Below the pieces are notes generated by a model. It was not told the DNA's origin, did no database searches, and saw only the letters and a list, made by a program, of their open reading frames with translations. The position numbers and the translations under genes are program-made. Of a DNA stretch of 64,000 nt, positions 32,195 to 39,728 are shown piece by piece; within the stretch, counting starts at the first letter, position 1; each line of letters starts with the position of its first letter. Origin of the DNA: Muribaculaceae bacterium (GTDB taxonomy: Bacteria > Bacteroidota > Bacteroidia > Bacteroidales > Muribaculaceae); contig JAGASI010000020.1 in assembly GCA_017621845.1 (NCBI GenBank), positions 24,149 through 88,148 of the forward strand. The letters are read 5' to 3'.

Positions 32195-33406
32195 TTATTT
32201 GTCGAGGTCGGTGAAGAAAGTGGGAATGTTGGCGATGAAGACGTCGGGGGTGTCGAGCAACGGGCGGTTGGCGATGAGGTCGGCGAGTTTAATAAGGCCT
32301 ACAACATAGTTTACGCCGGTTGATGAGTATCGCTCGCTGATACTTTCAAATGGTAATAGCGATGGAATGTCGGTGTCTTTAAACCTTACATATACCTTGA
32401 GTGGCAGGTCGGTGGTGTAGGCAGGACGGCCACGGTAGCCCATTTTTTTGTATTCATAGCGATAGCCGTGGAGACGTGCCATGACGTCGGAGAGTATCGA
32501 TGAGGCTGTGGGGAGAGAACCGGCGCCCTTGCCGAACATGAACTGGCGGTCATAGCACTCGCCACGTATCACAACACCGTTGTACTCGTCATCAACGCTA
32601 TAGATGTATTTGGAGCGCGTGACAAATTCGGGCATAACGAACATTGTGAACTTGTCGTCCCCGATTTTGGCAACCTGGGCCACGAGTTTGATTTTGACGC
32701 GTTTTTCGCGTGCATAGTTTATGTCATAGTCGTTGATGTGGGATATGCCGTAGGTGAATATTTCTTCCGGAGCGACATATACACCGAGTGCATGAACGGT
32801 GATGATGATGAGCTTGAACAGCGAGTCATATCCATCGATGTCAAACGATGGGTCGGCTTCGGCAAATCCTAATTGCTGGGCGCGTTTAAGAGCCGAGTCA
32901 TAGCTCTCGTCATGGTCAAACACCTGTGAGAGAATATAGTTGGACGAGCCGTTGAGAATACCCTTGACTTCGAGCAACAGATCGTTGTCATAGTATTCCT
33001 CGAGGTTGCGGATAACGGGTATTGAGCCACATGACGAGGCGTCATACAGCAGGGCGGTGTCATAGCGCCGTTGCAGGTCTATCAACTCGGGGAGATGGCG
33101 TGCTATCATAGCCTTACTGCCCGAAACAACGGGTATGCCAGCTCTCAGCGCCCGGGTTACTATACGATACGAAGCCTCGGCATCGCTGATGACCTCGACG
33201 ATAAGGTTTATACGTGGGTCGTTGAAGATGTCATCGGGATTTGATGTGAGTAGTGTCGGGTCAAGGTCGATCGATCGGGGTTTGTTAATGTCCCTGACAC
33301 AGATACGCTTGATTTCGGCATGGGCGTTACGTGCCTTGCCTATGATTTTTACTATTCCGGAACCAACTGTCCCTAATCCGAATAGTCCAATATTTATTGT
33401 TGCCAT
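32195..33406 (-). CDS. hom: Homoserine dehydrogenase
   Basis: A 403-residue enzyme. The NAD(P) loop LGTVGSGIV lies near the N-terminus. The catalytic domain shows VSGSKAMIA, the KGILNGSSNYIL motif, the Glu-Asp active-site segment GFAEADPSFDIDGYDSLFKL. It reduces aspartate semialdehyde to homoserine, the branch point to Met and Thr. The C-terminal ~60 residues lack a clear ACT domain, so threonine feedback is uncertain. Its start overlaps the metX stop by 13 bases; it is the last gene of metY-metX-hom. Confidence 0.93.
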   Translation of the reverse strand: MATINIGLFGLGTVGSGIVKIIGKARNAHAEIKRICVRDINKPRSIDLDPTLLTSNPDDIFNDPRINLIVEVISDAEASYRIVTRALRAGIPVVSGSKAMIARHLPELIDLQRRYDTALLYDASSCGSIPVIRNLEEYYDNDLLLEVKGILNGSSNYILSQVFDHDESYDSALKRAQQLGFAEADPSFDIDGYDSLFKLIIITVHALGVYVAPEEIFTYGISHINDYDINYAREKRVKIKLVAQVAKIGDDKFTMFVMPEFVTRSKYIYSVDDEYNGVVIRGECYDRQFMFGKGAGSLPTASSILSDVMARLHGYRYEYKKMGYRGRPAYTTDLPLKVYVRFKDTDIPSLLPFESISERYSSTGVNYVVGLIKLADLIANRPLLDTPDVFIANIPTFFTDLDK

Positions 33407-34425
33407 AAGAAATTGTAAAGTATAGAGTTAAGTTGGTCATACTCGACCAGAAAGCCATCATGACCCAGAGGCGAGTCAATATGGTGATAAATGGCGCCGG
33501 GTATACGAGCCGTAAGAGCTTTCATCTCAGCGACGGTAAAAATAATATCGGTAGTGATACCAACGACAACCGTGGGCATGGACAAGCATGCAAGGGCGTT
33601 GTCGAGACCGCCACGTCCGCGACCAACATCGTGAGTGTCAAATGTGTCGAGAATGGTCACGTAAGAGTAGGCGTCGAAGCGTCTAACCAGTTTGTCGCCC
33701 TGATGTTGCTGGTATGTACAGGCGCGGTGGACAGCAGGGATGGTGTCATTGTCACAATGCGGGTCCTGCTGTGAGATGTTATATCCCTCGGGGCCGCGAT
33801 AGGTGAGCATACCTATTGCACGGGCGGCGGCGAGTCCACGGGCAGCGGCATCGGCATGGTGTTCGCCCCAAGTGCTGTCAGCCTTGATAGCCATGCGTTG
33901 GGTCTCATCGACAGCTATCGCCCAGGGAGAGGCTTTGGCATCCGTTGCGACCAAAACCAGGCGGTCAAATCTATGTGGCTCCTGTACGGCCCATTCCAAG
34001 GCTTGGAAACCGCCAACCGAACTGCCTACCAAAGCATAGATGCGGCCGATGCCGAGATGGTCGGCCAACAGTCGGTGGGCATGGACAACATCCCGCATCG
34101 TCAAGCGCGGGAAGGTGTCATACCACGGTTCTCCGGAAGCAGGATTTATAGACATCGGTCCGGTGGTGCCATAACAAGAGCCGAGGATATTGGCACACAC
34201 CACAAACGCTTTGGCCGGGTCGAGGAAGCGGCCCGCCTCAATGGTATGTGGCCACCAGTCGCTGACATCGCTGTTGGCCGTCAGCGCATGGGCTACCCAT
34301 ACACAGTTGTCCCGCCCGGAGGTGAGTGTTCCCCACGTGTGGTAAGCGATGTCGAGTGACGGGAGTATGCGTCCACTCTCCAATTCAAATGGGTGGGGGT
34401 AATGATAAACCTTTAGTTGTGACAT
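33394..34425 (-). CDS. metX: Homoserine O-acetyltransferase
   Basis: A 343-residue alpha/beta-hydrolase of the MetX family. It shows the oxyanion motif NILGSCYGTTGP, the nucleophile elbow VGSSVGGFQALEWA (Ser136) and the C-terminal GHDGFL histidine. It activates homoserine to O-acetylhomoserine (a succinyl donor is possible; the family does not fix this). It lies between metY (34-bp gap) and hom (13-bp overlap) in a compact methionine operon governed by the attenuator at 35775-35935. Confidence 0.95.
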   Translation of the reverse strand: MSQLKVYHYPHPFELESGRILPSLDIAYHTWGTLTSGRDNCVWVAHALTANSDVSDWWPHTIEAGRFLDPAKAFVVCANILGSCYGTTGPMSINPASGEPWYDTFPRLTMRDVVHAHRLLADHLGIGRIYALVGSSVGGFQALEWAVQEPHRFDRLVLVATDAKASPWAIAVDETQRMAIKADSTWGEHHADAAARGLAAARAIGMLTYRGPEGYNISQQDPHCDNDTIPAVHRACTYQQHQGDKLVRRFDAYSYVTILDTFDTHDVGRGRGGLDNALACLSMPTVVVGITTDIIFTVAEMKALTARIPGAIYHHIDSPLGHDGFLVEYDQLNSILYNFLWQQ

Positions 34426-34459: not shown

Positions 34460-35758
34460 TTACTGTTTTTTTACACCATGGGTTTTTACAGCTTGTTCAA
34501 AGTCGGCGATAATGTCCTCGACATCTTCGAGGCCGAGCGATATACGCAGAAGGGTGGGTGTAACGCCGGCTTGTTTCATATCGCTGTCGCTGAGCTGTTT
34601 GTGGGTTGTTGAAGCGGGGTGTGTCACTACTGATATTGAGTCTCCTATCATAGTCATGTGTGCAAATAATTGCAGAGCTTCAACTACATGTGCGGTGGTA
34701 TTTACATCTCCGTTAAGTTCAACATTGAGCACCGCCGAACCTCCATGCTTAAAGTATTTCTGAGCCAGGGCGTGAGAGGGATGGTCTTCAAATCCCACAT
34801 AGCTGACTGTCTTGACGTATGGCGACTCTCTCAGGTATTGAGCAAAACGGCGTGTTGACTCTACCTGATGTCTGACTCGCAATGAAAGCGTTTCCAAGCC
34901 TAAGAGCATAAGGTAGCTGTCAAAAGCTGAGGGACATGGACCGAGGTCACGCAGGACGTCAACGCGGCACTTGGCGATGAAAGCGGCAGGGCCGAATGTT
35001 TGCCACATATTGAGCCCATGATAGCTCTCGTCGGGACCGTCAATGTCGGGATAGCGCCCGTTGCTCCAATCAAAGCGGCCGCTGTCAACTATAATGCCAC
35101 CCATGGCTGTGCCGTGGCCGTTAATCCATTTGGTAGCCGAGTCGACAATGATGTCGGCTCCCCAGTCAAATGGGTTGCACAGGTAGCCGCCGGCGCCGAA
35201 GGTGTTGTCGATAACCAGTGGTGTGCCATGACGGTGTGCAACATCGGCCAAAGCCTCGATATCTACGACATGACAGGTAGGATTGCCCATGCTCTCGGCA
35301 AATACCAGACGAGTGTCTTTGTCGATGAGTTTTTCAAAGTCGGCCGGGTCGGTGCTCGCGGCAATTCTGACCTCGATGCCGAGACGGTCGAGAGTGTGGC
35401 GGTATTGGTTGTAGGTGCCACCATAGAGCAGAGGCGAAGCCACGATATTCTGACCCTTGGAGGTGAGGTTGAGGACAGTTACCATGATGGCCGACATGCC
35501 CGAGGCAAGCGCCAGCGCGCCAATGCCGCCATAGAGAGCGGCCACGCGCTCCTCATAGGCTGTGTTGGTGGGATTCTGCAGGCGGGTGTATATGTTGCCC
35601 GGCTCGCTTAGCTCAAACAGATTGGCTGCATATTCACAGTCTTTAAAACGGTAAGCGGCGGTGGGATAAATAGCTATGCCGCGTGAGCCGGTAGGCTCCT
35701 GGTGATTGAGACCGGCATGGATCTGTCGTGTCTGAAAACCTAAGTTTTTATAGTCCAT
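34460..35758 (-). CDS. metY: O-acetylhomoserine sulfhydrylase
   Basis: A 432-residue PLP enzyme of the Cys/Met metabolism family. Seen are the N-terminal FQTRQIHAGLN, the VIDNTFGAGGYLCNPFDWGADI region and the PLP lysine in DSATKWINGHG. The length and GA-type insertions fit the sulfide-using MetY rather than cystathionine synthases. It makes homocysteine from O-acetylhomoserine and sulfide. ATG at 35758 lies 17 nt after the U-run of the leader terminator, so its transcription is the direct target of the attenuator. Confidence 0.95.
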   Translation of the reverse strand: MDYKNLGFQTRQIHAGLNHQEPTGSRGIAIYPTAAYRFKDCEYAANLFELSEPGNIYTRLQNPTNTAYEERVAALYGGIGALALASGMSAIMVTVLNLTSKGQNIVASPLLYGGTYNQYRHTLDRLGIEVRIAASTDPADFEKLIDKDTRLVFAESMGNPTCHVVDIEALADVAHRHGTPLVIDNTFGAGGYLCNPFDWGADIIVDSATKWINGHGTAMGGIIVDSGRFDWSNGRYPDIDGPDESYHGLNMWQTFGPAAFIAKCRVDVLRDLGPCPSAFDSYLMLLGLETLSLRVRHQVESTRRFAQYLRESPYVKTVSYVGFEDHPSHALAQKYFKHGGSAVLNVELNGDVNTTAHVVEALQLFAHMTMIGDSISVVTHPASTTHKQLSDSDMKQAGVTPTLLRISLGLEDVEDIIADFEQAVKTHGVKKQ

Positions 35759-35774
35759 AATAATATTTATTATT

Positions 35775-35814
35775 AAAAAAATCCGGTCTGACGGGTTGGT
35801 GTCGGACCGGATTT
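35775..35814 (-). terminator. Leader terminator (attenuator) before metY
   Basis: On the minus strand a 14-bp stem (35814-35801 with 35792-35779, one G-U pair) closes an 8-nt loop ACCAACCC and is followed by a run of seven T (35781-35775). It sits between the Met-rich leader ORF and metY, oriented to stop metY-metX-hom transcription. Its 5' arm plus loop can instead pair with 35849-35863. Confidence 0.93.
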
Positions 35815-35863
35815 AGTTATCTGTAGATATATTGCTCTAATTTTAACTCCGATCCGACAACCC
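35793..35863 (-). promoter_or_regulatory. metY leader: Antiterminator structure of the met leader
   Basis: GGGUU (35863-35859) pairs with AACCC (35797-35793) in the terminator loop, and GUCGGAUCGG (35858-35849) pairs with CCGGUCCGAC (35810-35801), the terminator 5' arm. That is 15 pairs with one G-U and a 3-nt bulge. This structure and the terminator exclude each other. The 5' half lies in the last codons of the leader ORF, ending 3 nt before its final sense codon, where a ribosome at the stop codon would cover it. Confidence 0.85.
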
Positions 35864-35935
35864 ACGCATCACCATCATCATATCCATAGACATGATGTAC
35901 ATAGACATAGACATTGATGACATGATGCTGAGCAT
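35843..35935 (-). CDS. Methionine-rich leader peptide of the metY-metX-hom operon
   Basis: A 30-codon ATG-to-TAA frame with 11 Met codons: residues 1, 5, 8, 10, 12, 15, 17, 19, 20, 21 and 23, including a Met-Met-Met-Val-Met run; eight of the others are Ser. It begins 17 nt after the acyl-CoA dehydrogenase stop and ends 28 nt before the terminator. Proposed action: when charged Met-tRNA is scarce, ribosomes stall in the Met codons, leave 35849-35863 free, and the antiterminator forms. When Met is ample they reach the stop, mask that arm, and the terminator forms. The composition and placement make chance unlikely. No Shine-Dalgarno is evident, as usual in Bacteroidota. Confidence 0.88.
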   Translation of the reverse strand: MLSIMSSMSMSMYIMSMDMMMVMRGLSDRS

Positions 35936-35952
35936 AATCAGAGGTTGAGTTT

Positions 35953-37662
35953 TTAGGCTTGTTTATATAAATCGAGTTGATCAATATTGAAGTTGGCGAT
36001 GAAGTCGGCATGTTTGGCAACCTCGGCTTGGCCCATCTTGTTATAGACTTGGGCTGAGCGAGTGAAAGCCTCGTTACGCTGGGCGTCAAGCAGGAGCAGG
36101 TAGCCCATAACGATGTTGCCGGCCATCTCGACGAGACGACGTGCCATGAAGTCGGTATAAGTCTGGTCGTTGACGGCAAGGACAGTCTCGACAGCTTTTT
36201 GATACTGTTCGGTCATGGCGACAAGATTGGATTTGACATCGGCGAGTTCGGGGCGAACTTCGACTGTCTGCTCGACATAACCATTAATCAGGGTCATGTA
36301 TGTGCCGGTGGTGACGTGGCGTATGGCTGCTACAACCTGGAGCTGGGTTGTGCCCTCATATATTGAGGTAATGCGAGCATCGCGGTAGATGCGCTCACAG
36401 GCATAGTCTTTCATGAAGCCCGATCCACCGTGTACCTGGATGCAGTCATAAGCATTCTGGTTGCAGTATTCGCTGGTGAGGCCTTTGGCGAGAGGGGTGA
36501 GAGCATCGGCGAGTTTCTTGTAGAGTTTCATCTCTTTGCGCTCGTCACCGCTCAGAGAGCGTTCTTTGGCGATGTCCTCGTATGCTTTGTATAAGTCAAC
36601 ATAGCGAGCTGTCTCGTAAAGGAGAGTACGGGAAGCATCAAGCTTGGTCTTCATGACGGTAATCATTTCGGCCACAGCGGGGAATTCGATGATGGCCTTG
36701 CCAAACTGACGGCGCTCACGAGCATATTGGAGAGCTTCACGATAGGCAATCTCGCTTACGCCTACCGATTGGGCAGCGATGCCAAGACGAGCACCGTTCA
36801 TCAGGGCCATCACATATTTGATAAGGCCCATGCGGGTGTCGCCACATAGCTCGGCGGGGGCGTTCTTGTATGTGAGCTCACATGTGGGTGAGCCTTTGAT
36901 ACCCATCTTGTTCTCGATTCGGCGTACATTGACTCCACCGTTACGCTTGTCATAGATGAACATTGACAGGCCACGTCCGTCGGTAGTGCCTTCCTCTGAG
37001 CGAGCCAATACCAGGTGAATGTCGCTGTCACCGTTGGTGATGAAGCGTTTAACTCCGTTGAGAACCCATGTGCCGTCCTCTTTCTTGGTGGCTTTGAGCA
37101 TCACAGCCTGGAGGTCTGAGCCAGCATCGGGCTCGGTGAGGTCCATAGACATGGTCTCACCTTCACACACGCGAGGAATATATTTCTGTTTCTGTTCTTC
37201 AGAGCCAAACTCATAGAGGGTTTCGGCACAGTCTTGGAGTCCCCAGAGGTTTTCAAAACCGGTATCGGCGCGAGAGACGATGTCGGCGGCCATGATGTAT
37301 GGGGTGATGGGGAAGTTGAGACCACCAAGACGACGGGGCATGGACATGCCCATGAGGCCGGCTTTACGGCAGGCGTCAAGGTTGACTTGTGTGCCTGAGG
37401 CGTATGTCACGCGACCGTTGGCGACAGAGGGGCCTTCATGATCGACGCCCTCGGCGTTGGGTGCTATTGTGTTGGCGCATATATCACCTACAATATCCAG
37501 TACCTTGTCATAGTTATCCATTGCATCGTCAAAGTCGACGGGTGCATAGTCAAACTTCTCGGCATCGGTATAGTTACGTTCTTTGAGTTCGACAATTTTG
37601 CGCATCATCGGGTGGGTCAGATGGTGCTTGAGATCAGGATTGTCTGTATAGAAATTAGCCAT
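35953..37662 (-). CDS. Acyl-CoA dehydrogenase
   Basis: A 569-residue flavoenzyme, longer than the ~380-residue core by an N-terminal extension and a C-terminal helical domain of about 110 residues. Family motifs include TMSMDLTEPDAGSDLQAVMLKA, GSPTCELTY, YARERRQFGKAI and VHGGSGFMKDYACERIYRDARITSIYEGTTQLQ with the catalytic-base region. It probably oxidises an acyl-CoA and passes electrons to the ETF encoded upstream. The substrate is unknown. It is the third gene after etfB-etfA (33-bp gap) and is followed at once by the met leader. Confidence 0.93.
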   Translation of the reverse strand: MANFYTDNPDLKHHLTHPMMRKIVELKERNYTDAEKFDYAPVDFDDAMDNYDKVLDIVGDICANTIAPNAEGVDHEGPSVANGRVTYASGTQVNLDACRKAGLMGMSMPRRLGGLNFPITPYIMAADIVSRADTGFENLWGLQDCAETLYEFGSEEQKQKYIPRVCEGETMSMDLTEPDAGSDLQAVMLKATKKEDGTWVLNGVKRFITNGDSDIHLVLARSEEGTTDGRGLSMFIYDKRNGGVNVRRIENKMGIKGSPTCELTYKNAPAELCGDTRMGLIKYVMALMNGARLGIAAQSVGVSEIAYREALQYARERRQFGKAIIEFPAVAEMITVMKTKLDASRTLLYETARYVDLYKAYEDIAKERSLSGDERKEMKLYKKLADALTPLAKGLTSEYCNQNAYDCIQVHGGSGFMKDYACERIYRDARITSIYEGTTQLQVVAAIRHVTTGTYMTLINGYVEQTVEVRPELADVKSNLVAMTEQYQKAVETVLAVNDQTYTDFMARRLVEMAGNIVMGYLLLLDAQRNEAFTRSAQVYNKMGQAEVAKHADFIANFNIDQLDLYKQA

Positions 37663-37695
37663 ATACTTATATATAATGAGTAATCTGATTAAAGA

Positions 37696-38730
37696 TTACT
37701 TGGAATTCTTTTTATAATATTTGATAAGCTTGGGAACGACTTCCTCCATGTCGCCGGTGATTACATAGTCGGCAATCTTGTTGATTGGGGCATTGGGGTC
37801 GTTGTTGATGGAGATGATGATTGAGCTGTCCTGCATGCCGGCTATGTGCTGAATCTGACCAGAGATACCACAGGCGATGTATAATTTGGGACGTACAGTA
37901 ACACCTGTTTGGCCAATCTGTCGGGCGTGCTCGGTAAATCCGGCATCGACGGCGGCACGTGAGGCGCCTACCTCGCCGTTGAGGGTGCGGGCAAGCTCGT
38001 GTAGTAGCTCAAAGTTTTCTTTAGAGCCTACGCCATATCCACCGGCAACGATGATGGGCGAATTCTTGATGTTAATCTTGGATTTCTCGATATGGCGGTC
38101 GATAATTTCGACTACAAAGTCGGTATCGGCGACATATTTTTTGGCGTCAAGTTTGATGGCCTGTCCTTTATGGTTGGCGTCATATATTTCTTTTTTCATG
38201 ACACCCTCGCGCACGGTTGCCATCTGGGGACGACATTCGGGGTTGACGATGGTGGCGACGATGTTACCGCCAAAAGCAGGACGTATCTGGTACAACAGGT
38301 CGGTGTAGTCCTTGCCGGTCTTGACATCAGTGTGGTTGCCGATTTCAAGAGCAGTGCAGTCGGCGGTAAGACCGCTGTGCAGGCATGAAGATACGCGTGG
38401 ACCGAGGTCTCGTCCAATACATGTAGCTCCCATGAGGCATATCTGCGGCTTGATTTCCTTGAACAGGTTGATCAGTACAGCGGCATGGGGATTGGAGGTG
38501 TAGGGATATAGGCGTTTGTCTTCGACTTTATATACGGTGTCTGCGCCATAGGGGTATAATTGTTTCTCAATACCATCGAGTTTGTCACCGATGACCACTG
38601 CCTCGAGCTTGACGCCGAGTTTATTGGCCAGGACACGACCTTTGGTGAGAAGTTCGAGGCTGACGTCGGCAACGCGGCCTTCGTCATACTCACAGTAAAC
38701 TATCAGGTTGTTTTGTTCGTTATTTGCCAT
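37696..38730 (-). CDS. etfA: Electron transfer flavoprotein subunit alpha
   Basis: A 344-residue protein. The N-terminal domain is the ETF fold; the C-terminal FAD domain shows IVAGGYGVGS, GASRAAVDAGF, RQIGQTGVTVRPKLYIACGISGQIQHIAGM and the closing INNDPNAPINKIADY motif. With EtfB it carries electrons between the acyl-CoA dehydrogenase and the quinone or ferredoxin/NAD pools. An extra electron-bifurcating role is possible but cannot be told from sequence. It starts 31 bp after etfB. Confidence 0.97.
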   Translation of the reverse strand: MANNEQNNLIVYCEYDEGRVADVSLELLTKGRVLANKLGVKLEAVVIGDKLDGIEKQLYPYGADTVYKVEDKRLYPYTSNPHAAVLINLFKEIKPQICLMGATCIGRDLGPRVSSCLHSGLTADCTALEIGNHTDVKTGKDYTDLLYQIRPAFGGNIVATIVNPECRPQMATVREGVMKKEIYDANHKGQAIKLDAKKYVADTDFVVEIIDRHIEKSKINIKNSPIIVAGGYGVGSKENFELLHELARTLNGEVGASRAAVDAGFTEHARQIGQTGVTVRPKLYIACGISGQIQHIAGMQDSSIIISINNDPNAPINKIADYVITGDMEEVVPKLIKYYKKNSK

Positions 38731-38761
38731 AATAATATTATGTATGAAGGTCGGTTAGAGA

Positions 38762-39637
38762 TTAGCCGATAGTGTGGTTAGTGATAAGTTCTTTGATGAG
38801 GTCTTCAATCTGGCCGTCATTCTTGCCGTCGAGACAGAGGTTTTCTTTGGCGGTGAATACGACGTTTTCGACGTTTTTAACCTTGGTGGGCGATCCGGCG
38901 AGGCCAATTTGCTCGGGATCAGCCTCGACAAAGGCAGCCCCCCATTCTTTAAGTTGGAGGTAGGGACGTTTGTCAACGTATTGCTGGGCCTCGGGAGAGA
39001 GTGCGGCTTTTTCGCTGGGCGATACAGCATGTTTGAACTTCATGAGGCGTTTGGCATTACGTGGGCGGCACTCAGCGGCCGAACCGTTGACAGTTACCAC
39101 ACAGGGTAGGGGAGCTTTGACGGTCTCGACACCGTTCTCGAGGCGACGTTTTACAACGACATGGCCATCTTTGAGCTCGAGTATCTCTTCGGCGTATGTT
39201 ACTTGGGGGATGTTGAGTTTCTCGGCAATCTGAGGACCTACCTGGGCGGTGTCGCCATCAATAGCCTGACGGCCACCGAGGATGATATCATAGTTGCCGA
39301 TTTTTTTTACGGCCTGGGCCAAAGAGTAGGATGTAGCCAGGGTGTCGGCACCACCGAGAACACGGTCGGTAAGTACGATGCCGGTATCAGCACCACGGAA
39401 GATGGCCTCACGGATAACTTCTGCAGCGCGAGGCAAACCCATGGTGAGTATGGTGACTGTCGAGCCGGGGTTGGCGTCTTTAAGTCTGAGGGCCTGTTCG
39501 AGGGCGTTGAGGTCTTCGGGGTTGAAGATGGCGGGAAGCGCGGCACGGTTGATGGTGCCGTCGGCTTTCATGGCATCTTTGCCCACGTTGCGGGTGTCGG
39601 GTACCTGCTTGGCGAGCACAATGATGTTTAAGCTCAT
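38762..39637 (-). CDS. etfB: Electron transfer flavoprotein subunit beta
   Basis: A 291-residue ETF beta subunit with VLAKQVPDT near the N-terminus, NPEDLNALEQALRLKD, the DIILGGRQAIDGDTAQVGPQIAEKL block and VKRRLENGVETV. It binds AMP (or a second FAD in bifurcating types) and pairs with EtfA. ATG at 39637 is preferred over a TTG two codons upstream. It is the first gene of etfB-etfA-acyl-CoA dehydrogenase, with a good promoter about 92 bp upstream. Confidence 0.96.
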   Translation of the reverse strand: MSLNIIVLAKQVPDTRNVGKDAMKADGTINRAALPAIFNPEDLNALEQALRLKDANPGSTVTILTMGLPRAAEVIREAIFRGADTGIVLTDRVLGGADTLATSYSLAQAVKKIGNYDIILGGRQAIDGDTAQVGPQIAEKLNIPQVTYAEEILELKDGHVVVKRRLENGVETVKAPLPCVVTVNGSAAECRPRNAKRLMKFKHAVSPSEKAALSPEAQQYVDKRPYLQLKEWGAAFVEADPEQIGLAGSPTKVKNVENVVFTAKENLCLDGKNDGQIEDLIKELITNHTIG

Positions 39638-39728
39638 ATTCAAAAATTATAGTTTTTAATGATTAGTTGTCTGATTATAAGTATGATAAAGCGCAGTCGC
39701 CAATGGCGATAGCACGTTTACACGCGTG

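What the first reader, a model, noticed from the sequence alone, without database searches (positions are those of the whole stretch)
35775..35935. Methionine-sensing leader-peptide attenuator before metY-metX-hom
Seen: a 30-codon minus-strand ORF (35935-35843) with 11 Met codons; an intrinsic terminator (35814-35775, 14-bp stem, seven T) 17 nt before the metY ATG; and a mutually exclusive 15-bp antiterminator, in which 35863-35849 (last codons of the leader) pairs with 35810-35801 and 35797-35793. The geometry is that of classical amino-acid attenuation: stalling at early Met codons leaves the 5' arm free, so transcription reads through; reaching the TAA masks that arm, so the terminator forms. 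The genes behind it make homocysteine, the Met precursor. Methionine genes in other phyla usually use SAM riboswitches, T-boxes or MetJ; I know of no described Met leader-peptide attenuator in Bacteroidota.
Basis: partly seen in the sequence, partly recalled or inferred. Interest (0 to 1): 0.93.

Follow-up and report, generated by a model that had tools for sequence, protein, structure and literature searches.

The report
Methionine-sensing leader-peptide transcription switch
Just ahead of the methionine-making genes of a gut bacterium lies a tiny reading frame packed with methionine codons, followed by two alternative RNA hairpins; the arrangement is conserved in relatives and is predicted to let the cell switch these genes on when methionine runs short.

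Summary
In detail: a 30-codon leader with 11 Met codons, an intrinsic terminator 16 nt before metY, and an exclusive antiterminator whose 5' arm is the end of the leader (correction: the terminator stem has 13 pairs and a C.A mismatch).

Of 43 family genomes with a close MetY, 30 (window included) carry the element, 1 a variant, 10 none, 2 lie at contig ends. Terminator and antiterminator covary. ATG triplets fall 229/7/4 by frame; the last Met codon lies exactly 17 nt before the antiterminator core in 26 of 30. Folding with a ribosome mask gives antiterminator pairing of 0.08 at the stop codon, 0.70 at Met codons. Two genomes without that metY carry the leader before metX.

It reaches beyond the family: of 110 metY loci of the phylum, 25 have Met/Cys-rich leaders (antisense 0); 24 of 33 leader units have a nearby terminator (random points 40 of 452). 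Five loci hold two units in series; ten have leader, SAM-I riboswitch, metY in that order.

Best reading: classical ribosome-mediated attenuation sensing Met, for which I found no description in Bacteroidota. Translation, stalling and the response to Met are untested.

The parts
35843..35935 (-). leader ORF, 30 codons plus TAA, 11 Met codons
   Evidence: read directly; most Met-rich of 614 short ORFs in the window
35867..35935 (-). stretch that holds the Met codons; the last one (35869-35867) is 8 codons before the stop
   Evidence: Met at -14, -10 and -8 in 27 of 30 leaders each
35849..35863 (-). A arm: 5' arm of the antiterminator, last codons of the leader
   Evidence: pairing read; duplex energy; covariation
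35793..35810 (-). 3' arm of the antiterminator (35810-35801 and 35797-35793, bulge 35800-35798); shares 35810-35801 with the terminator's 5' arm
35775..35814 (-). intrinsic terminator: 5' arm 35814-35801, loop 35800-35793, 3' arm 35792-35779, T run 35781-35775
   Evidence: covariation
35860..35933 (-). predicted hairpin of early with late Met codons in the window; the window lacks the protector hairpin seen in relatives
   Evidence: minimum-energy fold; alignment row
34460..35758 (-). metY, O-acetylhomoserine sulfhydrylase
   Evidence: TIGR01326 558 bits over cut-off 495
33394..34425 (-). metX-like, homoserine O-acetyltransferase
   Evidence: best match TIGR01392, 343 bits, under that model's cut-off of 500
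32195..33406 (-). hom, homoserine dehydrogenase
   Evidence: NF004976 304 bits over cut-off 205; PF00742
35953..37662 (-). acyl-CoA dehydrogenase gene ending 17 nt before the leader ATG (neighbour, not part of the switch)

Best explanation
The element has the anatomy of a classical ribosome-mediated transcription attenuator ahead of metY-metX-hom, and it most likely senses methionine through the Met codons of its leader peptide. Predicted working: when charged Met-tRNA is scarce the ribosome stalls in the Met cluster; its footprint leaves the last codons of the leader (A arm) free, these pair with the terminator's 5' arm before the 3' arm is made, and RNA polymerase reads on into metY. When Met is plentiful the ribosome reaches the stop codon, covers the A arm, and the terminator forms 16 nt before metY. 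Shown here: the ORF, the two exclusive structures, their covariation in relatives, the frame and spacing of the Met codons, and the computed effect of a ribosome mask. Inferred: that the leader is translated, that stalling follows Met-tRNA charging, and that termination changes.
For: 30 of 43 family genomes with a close MetY carry it, the window included. Covariation scores against 500 shuffles: terminator 0.464 vs 0.200 (0/500), antiterminator 0.315 vs 0.157 (0/500). Own tail pairs with own terminator arm: -16.1 vs -12.7 kcal/mol, 0 of 20000 permutations; synonymous tails -9.5. ATG by frame 229/7/4; 17-nt spacing in 26 of 30. Masked folding 0.08 at stop vs 0.70 at Met codons. Leader stands before metX in two genomes without the close metY. 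Phylum: 25 of 110 loci sense, 0 antisense; C+M the most sense-biased of 190 residue pairs; 24 of 33 units with a terminator 10-50 nt after the stop, matched arms -11.2 vs -7.7 kcal/mol, 0 of 20000.
Against: 10 of the 43 genomes have no leader. Only 26 of 30 terminators pass my strict scan; L111, L112, L131 and L134 do not. At equilibrium of the full transcript, 20 of 30 leaders keep the terminator at 0.5 or more at each Met codon, so timing must decide; in the window itself a stall at the last Met codon also leaves the terminator at 0.90. Without a ribosome the partial transcript favours the antiterminator (0.70), so low basal expression without translation is not predicted. The protector hairpin is weaker evidence (doubly changed pairs 2, reached by 339/500 shuffles) and is missing from the window. 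The window's leader lacks the promoter box of its relatives. Shuffles do not remove shared ancestry. No expression data.
Confidence: 0.9

Rival explanations
1. Arrest peptide: the nascent Met-rich peptide itself senses Met or S-adenosylmethionine in the ribosome and stalls, feeding the same hairpin switch.
For: Met positions -14, -10 and -8 are kept in 27 of 30 each, Cys at -9 in 13 and -7 in 15; the tail resembles RxxxSRV in many leaders.
Against: The tail is lost in L004, L119 and L136 while the RNA arm is kept; N-terminal parts vary freely; phylum leaders share little beyond Met/Cys runs.
Confidence: 0.04
2. The clustered AUGs act as alternative start sites, so that the element senses initiation (fMet-tRNA) instead of elongator Met-tRNA.
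For: 229 of 240 ATG triplets are in the leader frame, which would also suit starts in one frame; Shine-Dalgarno sites are little used in Bacteroidota (recalled).
Against: Cys codons are co-enriched (0.051 vs 0.014 in the family; C+M top pair in the phylum), which initiation does not explain; the spacing from the last Met codon to the arm is fixed.
Confidence: 0.03
3. RNA-only switch (unknown riboswitch or protein site); the reading frame is incidental.
For: Three conserved, covarying or partly covarying hairpins.
Against: Frame bias of ATG 229/7/4; Met/Cys leaders with different arm sequences but the same geometry across the phylum; no Rfam match.
Confidence: 0.02
4. Chance: low-complexity ATG repeats next to an ordinary terminator.
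For: The window leader holds ATGTCT repeats and its Met codons can pair with one another.
Against: Conservation and covariation in 30 genomes; 25 sense vs 0 antisense of 110; 7 of 1044 control strands.
Confidence: 0.01

Closest known systems
Classical amino-acid attenuators of Proteobacteria (trp, his, leu, thr, ilv leaders; recalled)
   Same: Short ORF rich in the codon of the end product, exclusive antiterminator and terminator, ribosome position as the switch, biosynthetic operon downstream.
   Different: The codon is Met (often with Cys in relatives); Bacteroidota; in the phylum found two in series and in series with a SAM-I riboswitch.
Streptomyces lividans metL before metNIQ (PMC8079986, passages)
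   Same: A proposed leader with Met and Cys codons before a methionine gene cluster.
   Different: Actinobacteria, transport genes, leaderless transcript, no typical Rho-independent terminator reported; one species.
Cys-codon leader peptides of Mycobacterium cys operons (PMC1262725, passages)
   Same: Sulfur amino-acid codons in a short upstream ORF.
   Different: Cys only, no conserved terminator hairpins found; the paper reports no element before methionine operons in Actinobacteria.
SAM-I riboswitch (RF00162)
   Same: Controls the same kind of gene; sits in series with the leader in ten held loci.
   Different: Senses SAM directly without translation; none found in the window or its genome.
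Leader-like sORFs reported in Bacteroides thetaiotaomicron (PMC7366714) and Flavobacterium psychrophilum (PMC9723704) (passages)
   Same: Suggest that leader-peptide attenuation exists in Bacteroidota.
   Different: The passages seen name no methionine leader; supplements were not read.

Membership tests
Ribosome-mediated (classical) transcription attenuator | short upstream ORF rich in codons of the pathway's end product | tested here: met
   11 of 30 Met in the window; Met 0.217 in 30 leaders vs 0.025 background
Ribosome-mediated (classical) transcription attenuator | intrinsic terminator between the ORF and the first gene | tested here: met
   window and 26 of 30 by strict scan; covariation 0/500
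Ribosome-mediated (classical) transcription attenuator | exclusive antiterminator whose 5' arm a ribosome at the stop codon covers and a ribosome at the sensing codons leaves free | tested here: met
   0.08 at stop vs 0.70 at Met codons, in silico
Ribosome-mediated (classical) transcription attenuator | protector (1:2) hairpin giving termination without translation | tested here: inconclusive
   hairpin 85% paired in relatives, weak covariation on some measures; missing in the window; unmasked partial transcript favours antiterminator
Ribosome-mediated (classical) transcription attenuator | downstream genes make the sensed amino acid | tested here: met
   metY, metX-like, hom: homocysteine branch
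Ribosome-mediated (classical) transcription attenuator | leader is translated and read-through follows amino-acid supply | not testable with these tools
   needs ribosome profiling, reporters or term-seq
SAM-I riboswitch | match to RF00162 | tested here: not met
   none in the window at gathering score, none in the own genome at E 0.001 (genome 95.8% complete)
T-box | match to an Rfam T-box model | tested here: not met
   scan of all 4227 Rfam families finds only RNase P and two tRNAs in the window

The most novel reading that the evidence does not exclude
Bacteroidota and Ignavibacteria use an undescribed, phylum-wide class of Met/Cys-codon leader-peptide attenuators on homocysteine synthesis. 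Lineages wire it as a single sensor (Muribaculaceae), as two leader-terminator units in series, or in series with a SAM-I riboswitch, so that one operon reads charged Met-tRNA, perhaps charged Cys-tRNA, and SAM one after another.
Probability: 0.75. Interest if true: 0.85.

Novelty: new variant of a known kind. Interest (0 to 1): 0.8.

Why it matters
Described RNA controls of methionine genes are chiefly SAM riboswitches and T-boxes (recalled). A Met leader attenuator conserved across a major gut phylum would fill the Met place in the classical set of amino-acid attenuators, explain how genomes such as the window's, with no SAM-I riboswitch found, control homocysteine synthesis, and supply natural two-signal circuits (leader then SAM-I on one transcript, or two leaders in series) in which tRNA charging and SAM can be separated experimentally. 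It would also test how closely translation follows transcription in a phylum that starts translation largely without Shine-Dalgarno sites (recalled).

Tried and rejected
Rfam: no match at the leader itself in the window or the relatives scanned. RNA model R1 in 247 family genomes: the 22 best hits (E 1.9e-6 or better) are 21 before metY and 1 before metX (G032); L175 (E 2.2e-4) is also a leader before metX (G071). Eight other hits that I looked at, L174 (E 1.5e-4), L176-L181 (E 6e-4 to 5e-3) and L182 of the own genome (E 0.12), look like ordinary terminators or out-of-frame ATG runs, none before a recognisable methionine gene; seven weaker hits and ten were not looked at. In 198 genomes of the order only the window, G022 and three borderline hits appear; those three (L331-L333) are ordinary terminators. 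The family-specific form therefore looks confined to the family, as far as this strict filter sees.

MetX in the family: of 12 held loci from genomes without the close metY whose metX start could be read, 2 (G032, G071) have the leader, 9 none, and G130 only a weak GTG ORF; 2 more (G007, G035) could not be read, and 20 weaker metX matches were not fetched. Distant metY homologues (L010-L030, about 44% identity) showed no such leader with terminator in the upstream sequence printed. Equilibrium folding of the full transcript was a poor test for relatives; folding up to the terminator loop was added and both are reported. In one search the A windows of L115, L116 and L125 are misplaced, because a Met codon lies in or after the tail; they were kept. 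L119 is cut by its contig edge just before the leader. A blastn search of the plasmid collection found nothing. Chance, riboswitch, arrest-peptide and start-site readings are among the rivals.

Full report
What is in the window. On the minus strand, 17 nt after the end of an acyl-CoA dehydrogenase gene, lies a 30-codon ORF (35935-35843) with 11 Met codons. It is the most Met-rich of 614 ATG ORFs of 15-80 aa in the window (0.37; next 0.25). A hairpin begins 28 nt after its stop (35814-35779), with seven T, then 16 nt to the ATG of metY. The antiterminator is as described. The genes behind are metY, a metX-like gene and hom. No Rfam family matches the site, and no SAM-I riboswitch was found in the genome, which is 95.8% complete.

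Conservation in the family. The family is Muribaculaceae by inference: G104, which one search places in the window's family, carries the same leader as the named record L031, a Muribaculaceae bacterium. Of 397 family genomes searched with an alignment of seven close MetY, 43 have a match at E 1e-160 or better. Of these, 30 (window included) have a Met-rich leader ORF followed by the hairpins, 1 (L144) has a variant ending MRMCR, 10 have none (L008, L135, L141, L142, L145-L150), and 2 lie at contig ends (L139, L151). In the 30 leaders 199 of 918 residues after the start are Met (0.217; 0.025 in six window proteins) and 0.051 are Cys (0.014).

Codon-level constraint. ATG triplets in the 30 leaders fall 229/7/4 by frame, starts included. 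Met stands 14, 10 and 8 codons before the stop in 27 of 30 each; Cys stands at -9 in 13 and at -7 in 15. From the last Met codon of the cluster to the CCGG core of the antiterminator arm is exactly 17 nt in 26 of 30. With a footprint of about 14 nt from the A-site codon (assumed), a ribosome waiting there just clears the arm.

Covariation. On the alignment of 30 leaders (A2), against 500 column shuffles, the terminator scores 0.464 (shuffled 0.200, 0/500) with 8 of 10 pairs doubly changed, and the antiterminator 0.315 (0.157, 0/500) with 7 of 10. A protector hairpin, which holds the antiterminator arm against the codons before it, scores 0.248 (0.179, 2/500), but its 2 doubly changed pairs of 7 are reached by 339 of 500 shuffles, and the window lacks it. 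The score and the share of cells paired fall in all three when the partners are slid by 1-3 columns. The shuffles do not remove shared ancestry. Each leader's tail pairs with its own terminator arm better than with those of others (-16.1 against -12.7 kcal/mol; 0 of 20000 permutations), and random synonymous codons give -9.5. In L004, L119 and L136 the stop codon comes before the arm and the peptide tail is lost, but the arm remains: the RNA is what is kept. My strict scan finds the terminator in 26 of 30; in L111, L112, L131 and L134 a hairpin is visible by eye but does not pass.

Ribosome model. Folding the transcript up to the terminator loop, with the footprint forbidden to pair, gives mean antiterminator pairing of 0.08 for a ribosome at the stop codon and 0.70 at Met codons (mean of medians; Met codons at -6 or further from the stop). 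All 30 leaders have a Met codon that reaches 0.3; one reaches 0.3 at the stop. The window's complete transcript switches even at equilibrium: terminator 0.90 at the stop, 0.00-0.23 at nine Met codons, but 0.90 at the last one. Against the reading: in 20 of 30 leaders the complete transcript keeps the terminator at 0.5 or more at each Met codon, so timing must decide; and without a ribosome the partial transcript favours the antiterminator (0.70), so termination without translation is not predicted.

Genes that carry it. Model R1 found 36 of 247 family genomes at E 0.01. Of the 22 best hits, 21 lie before metY (20 in genomes, and G174, whose metY runs to the end of the locus) and one, in G032 (E 2e-11), directly before metX; G071 (E 2.2e-4) also has the leader before metX. 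Both genomes lack the close metY. The other hits that I looked at seem to be chance. A TAnnTTTG box, printed as the sigma-A consensus of flavobacteria in PMC9723704, lies within 120 nt before the leader in 25 of 30 (mononucleotide shuffles mean 1.8, at most 7). The window lacks it and is probably read through from the operon in front.

Beyond the family. Of 198 phylum genomes, 157 have MetY at E 1e-100. I took 110 upstream regions: 80 that I chose to spread over families (a few genomes twice) and the 30 best-scoring. A short ORF with at least five Met+Cys in ten residues, two of them Met, occurs in 25 of 110 on the sense strand and 0 of 110 on the antisense strand. With each residue present at least once, C+M is the most sense-biased of 190 residue pairs (29 against 0; next K+M, 17 against 1), and control flank strands of 600 nt give 7 of 1044. 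With three named loci added (chosen because they had leaders), 24 of 33 leader units have a terminator starting 10-50 nt after the stop, in fact at 19-35 nt; random points in the same regions give 40 of 452. In these 24, tails match their own terminators (-11.2 against -7.7 kcal/mol, 0 of 20000 permutations), and masking gives 0.08 at the stop against 0.72 at Met/Cys codons. Arm sequences differ between loci (GCCGG, GAAGGG, CCAAAAG, GGAGTGG) while the geometry stays.

Combinations. Five survey loci hold two leader units in series (L207, L209, L231, L258, L292); L207 carries the same leaders as the named Melioribacter record L036. In ten loci the order is leader, SAM-I riboswitch, metY (L041, L078, L260, L264, L273, L278, L280, L291, L294, L297); in L278 the hairpin after the leader is far (73 nt) and its antiterminator weak. 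In L226, L228, L230, L240, L075 and L052 a Met/Cys ORF follows SAM-I, and in L233 it overlaps it; the first four and L233 have no terminator in the range (L228 has one at 44 nt), so they may be another kind. L105, a Prevotellaceae genome, has the simple form.

Literature. Searches of the open PubMed Central library listed no paper that describes a Met leader attenuator in Bacteroidota. The nearest is Streptomyces lividans metL before metNIQ, with Met and Cys codons but no typical terminator (PMC8079986, passages). PMC1262725 reports Cys leaders and no methionine element in Actinobacteria (passages). PMC7366714 and PMC9723704 mention leader-like sORFs or attenuation in Bacteroidota, without methionine in the passages seen. 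PMC2965389 and PMC4833913 do not report it in the passages seen. Subscription papers and supplements were not searched.

Verdict. The finding is real and its interpretation is well supported. It is ribosome-mediated attenuation in nearly all features that sequence can show, with methionine as the likely sensed amino acid, in a phylum where I found none described; the serial forms make it a new variant. Translation, stalling and the response to Met are inferred.

Noticed in passing
L207 (same leaders as Melioribacter record L036), L209, L258, L292, L231, upstream of metY: Two Met/Cys leader units, each with its own terminator, stand in series before metY.
   Followed up: partly
L041, L078, L260, L264, L273, L278, L280, L291, L294, L297, upstream of metY: A Met/Cys leader and hairpin stand before a SAM-I riboswitch (RF00162) and then metY, a possible two-signal control.
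   Followed up: partly
L033, L034, L144, upstream of metY: A variant leader ends MRMCR with its stop codon inside the hairpin GTGCC-NTTA/NCTA-GGCAC and has no clear terminator; seen in two Rikenellaceae/Alistipes genomes and one genome of the window's family.
   Followed up: no
L226, L228, L230, L240, L052, L075, upstream of metY: A Met/Cys-rich short ORF follows a SAM-I riboswitch without a good terminator; possibly another kind of control.
   Followed up: no
L013:851-1318 (minus strand): Next to a distant metY homologue (44% identity) in a genome of the window's genus stands a divergent Lrp/AsnC-type regulator gene, a possible other control of homocysteine synthesis.
   Followed up: partly
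window 35935-39643 (minus strand): The leader starts 17 nt after the last of three genes in a row that look like electron-transfer flavoprotein (by eye) and acyl-CoA dehydrogenase genes; the switch may sit inside a longer transcript.
   Followed up: no
L009 (G024:C10:34871-35683): The close metY there matches only from residue 155 on and is listed with one internal TGA; no leader was found before it.
   Followed up: no
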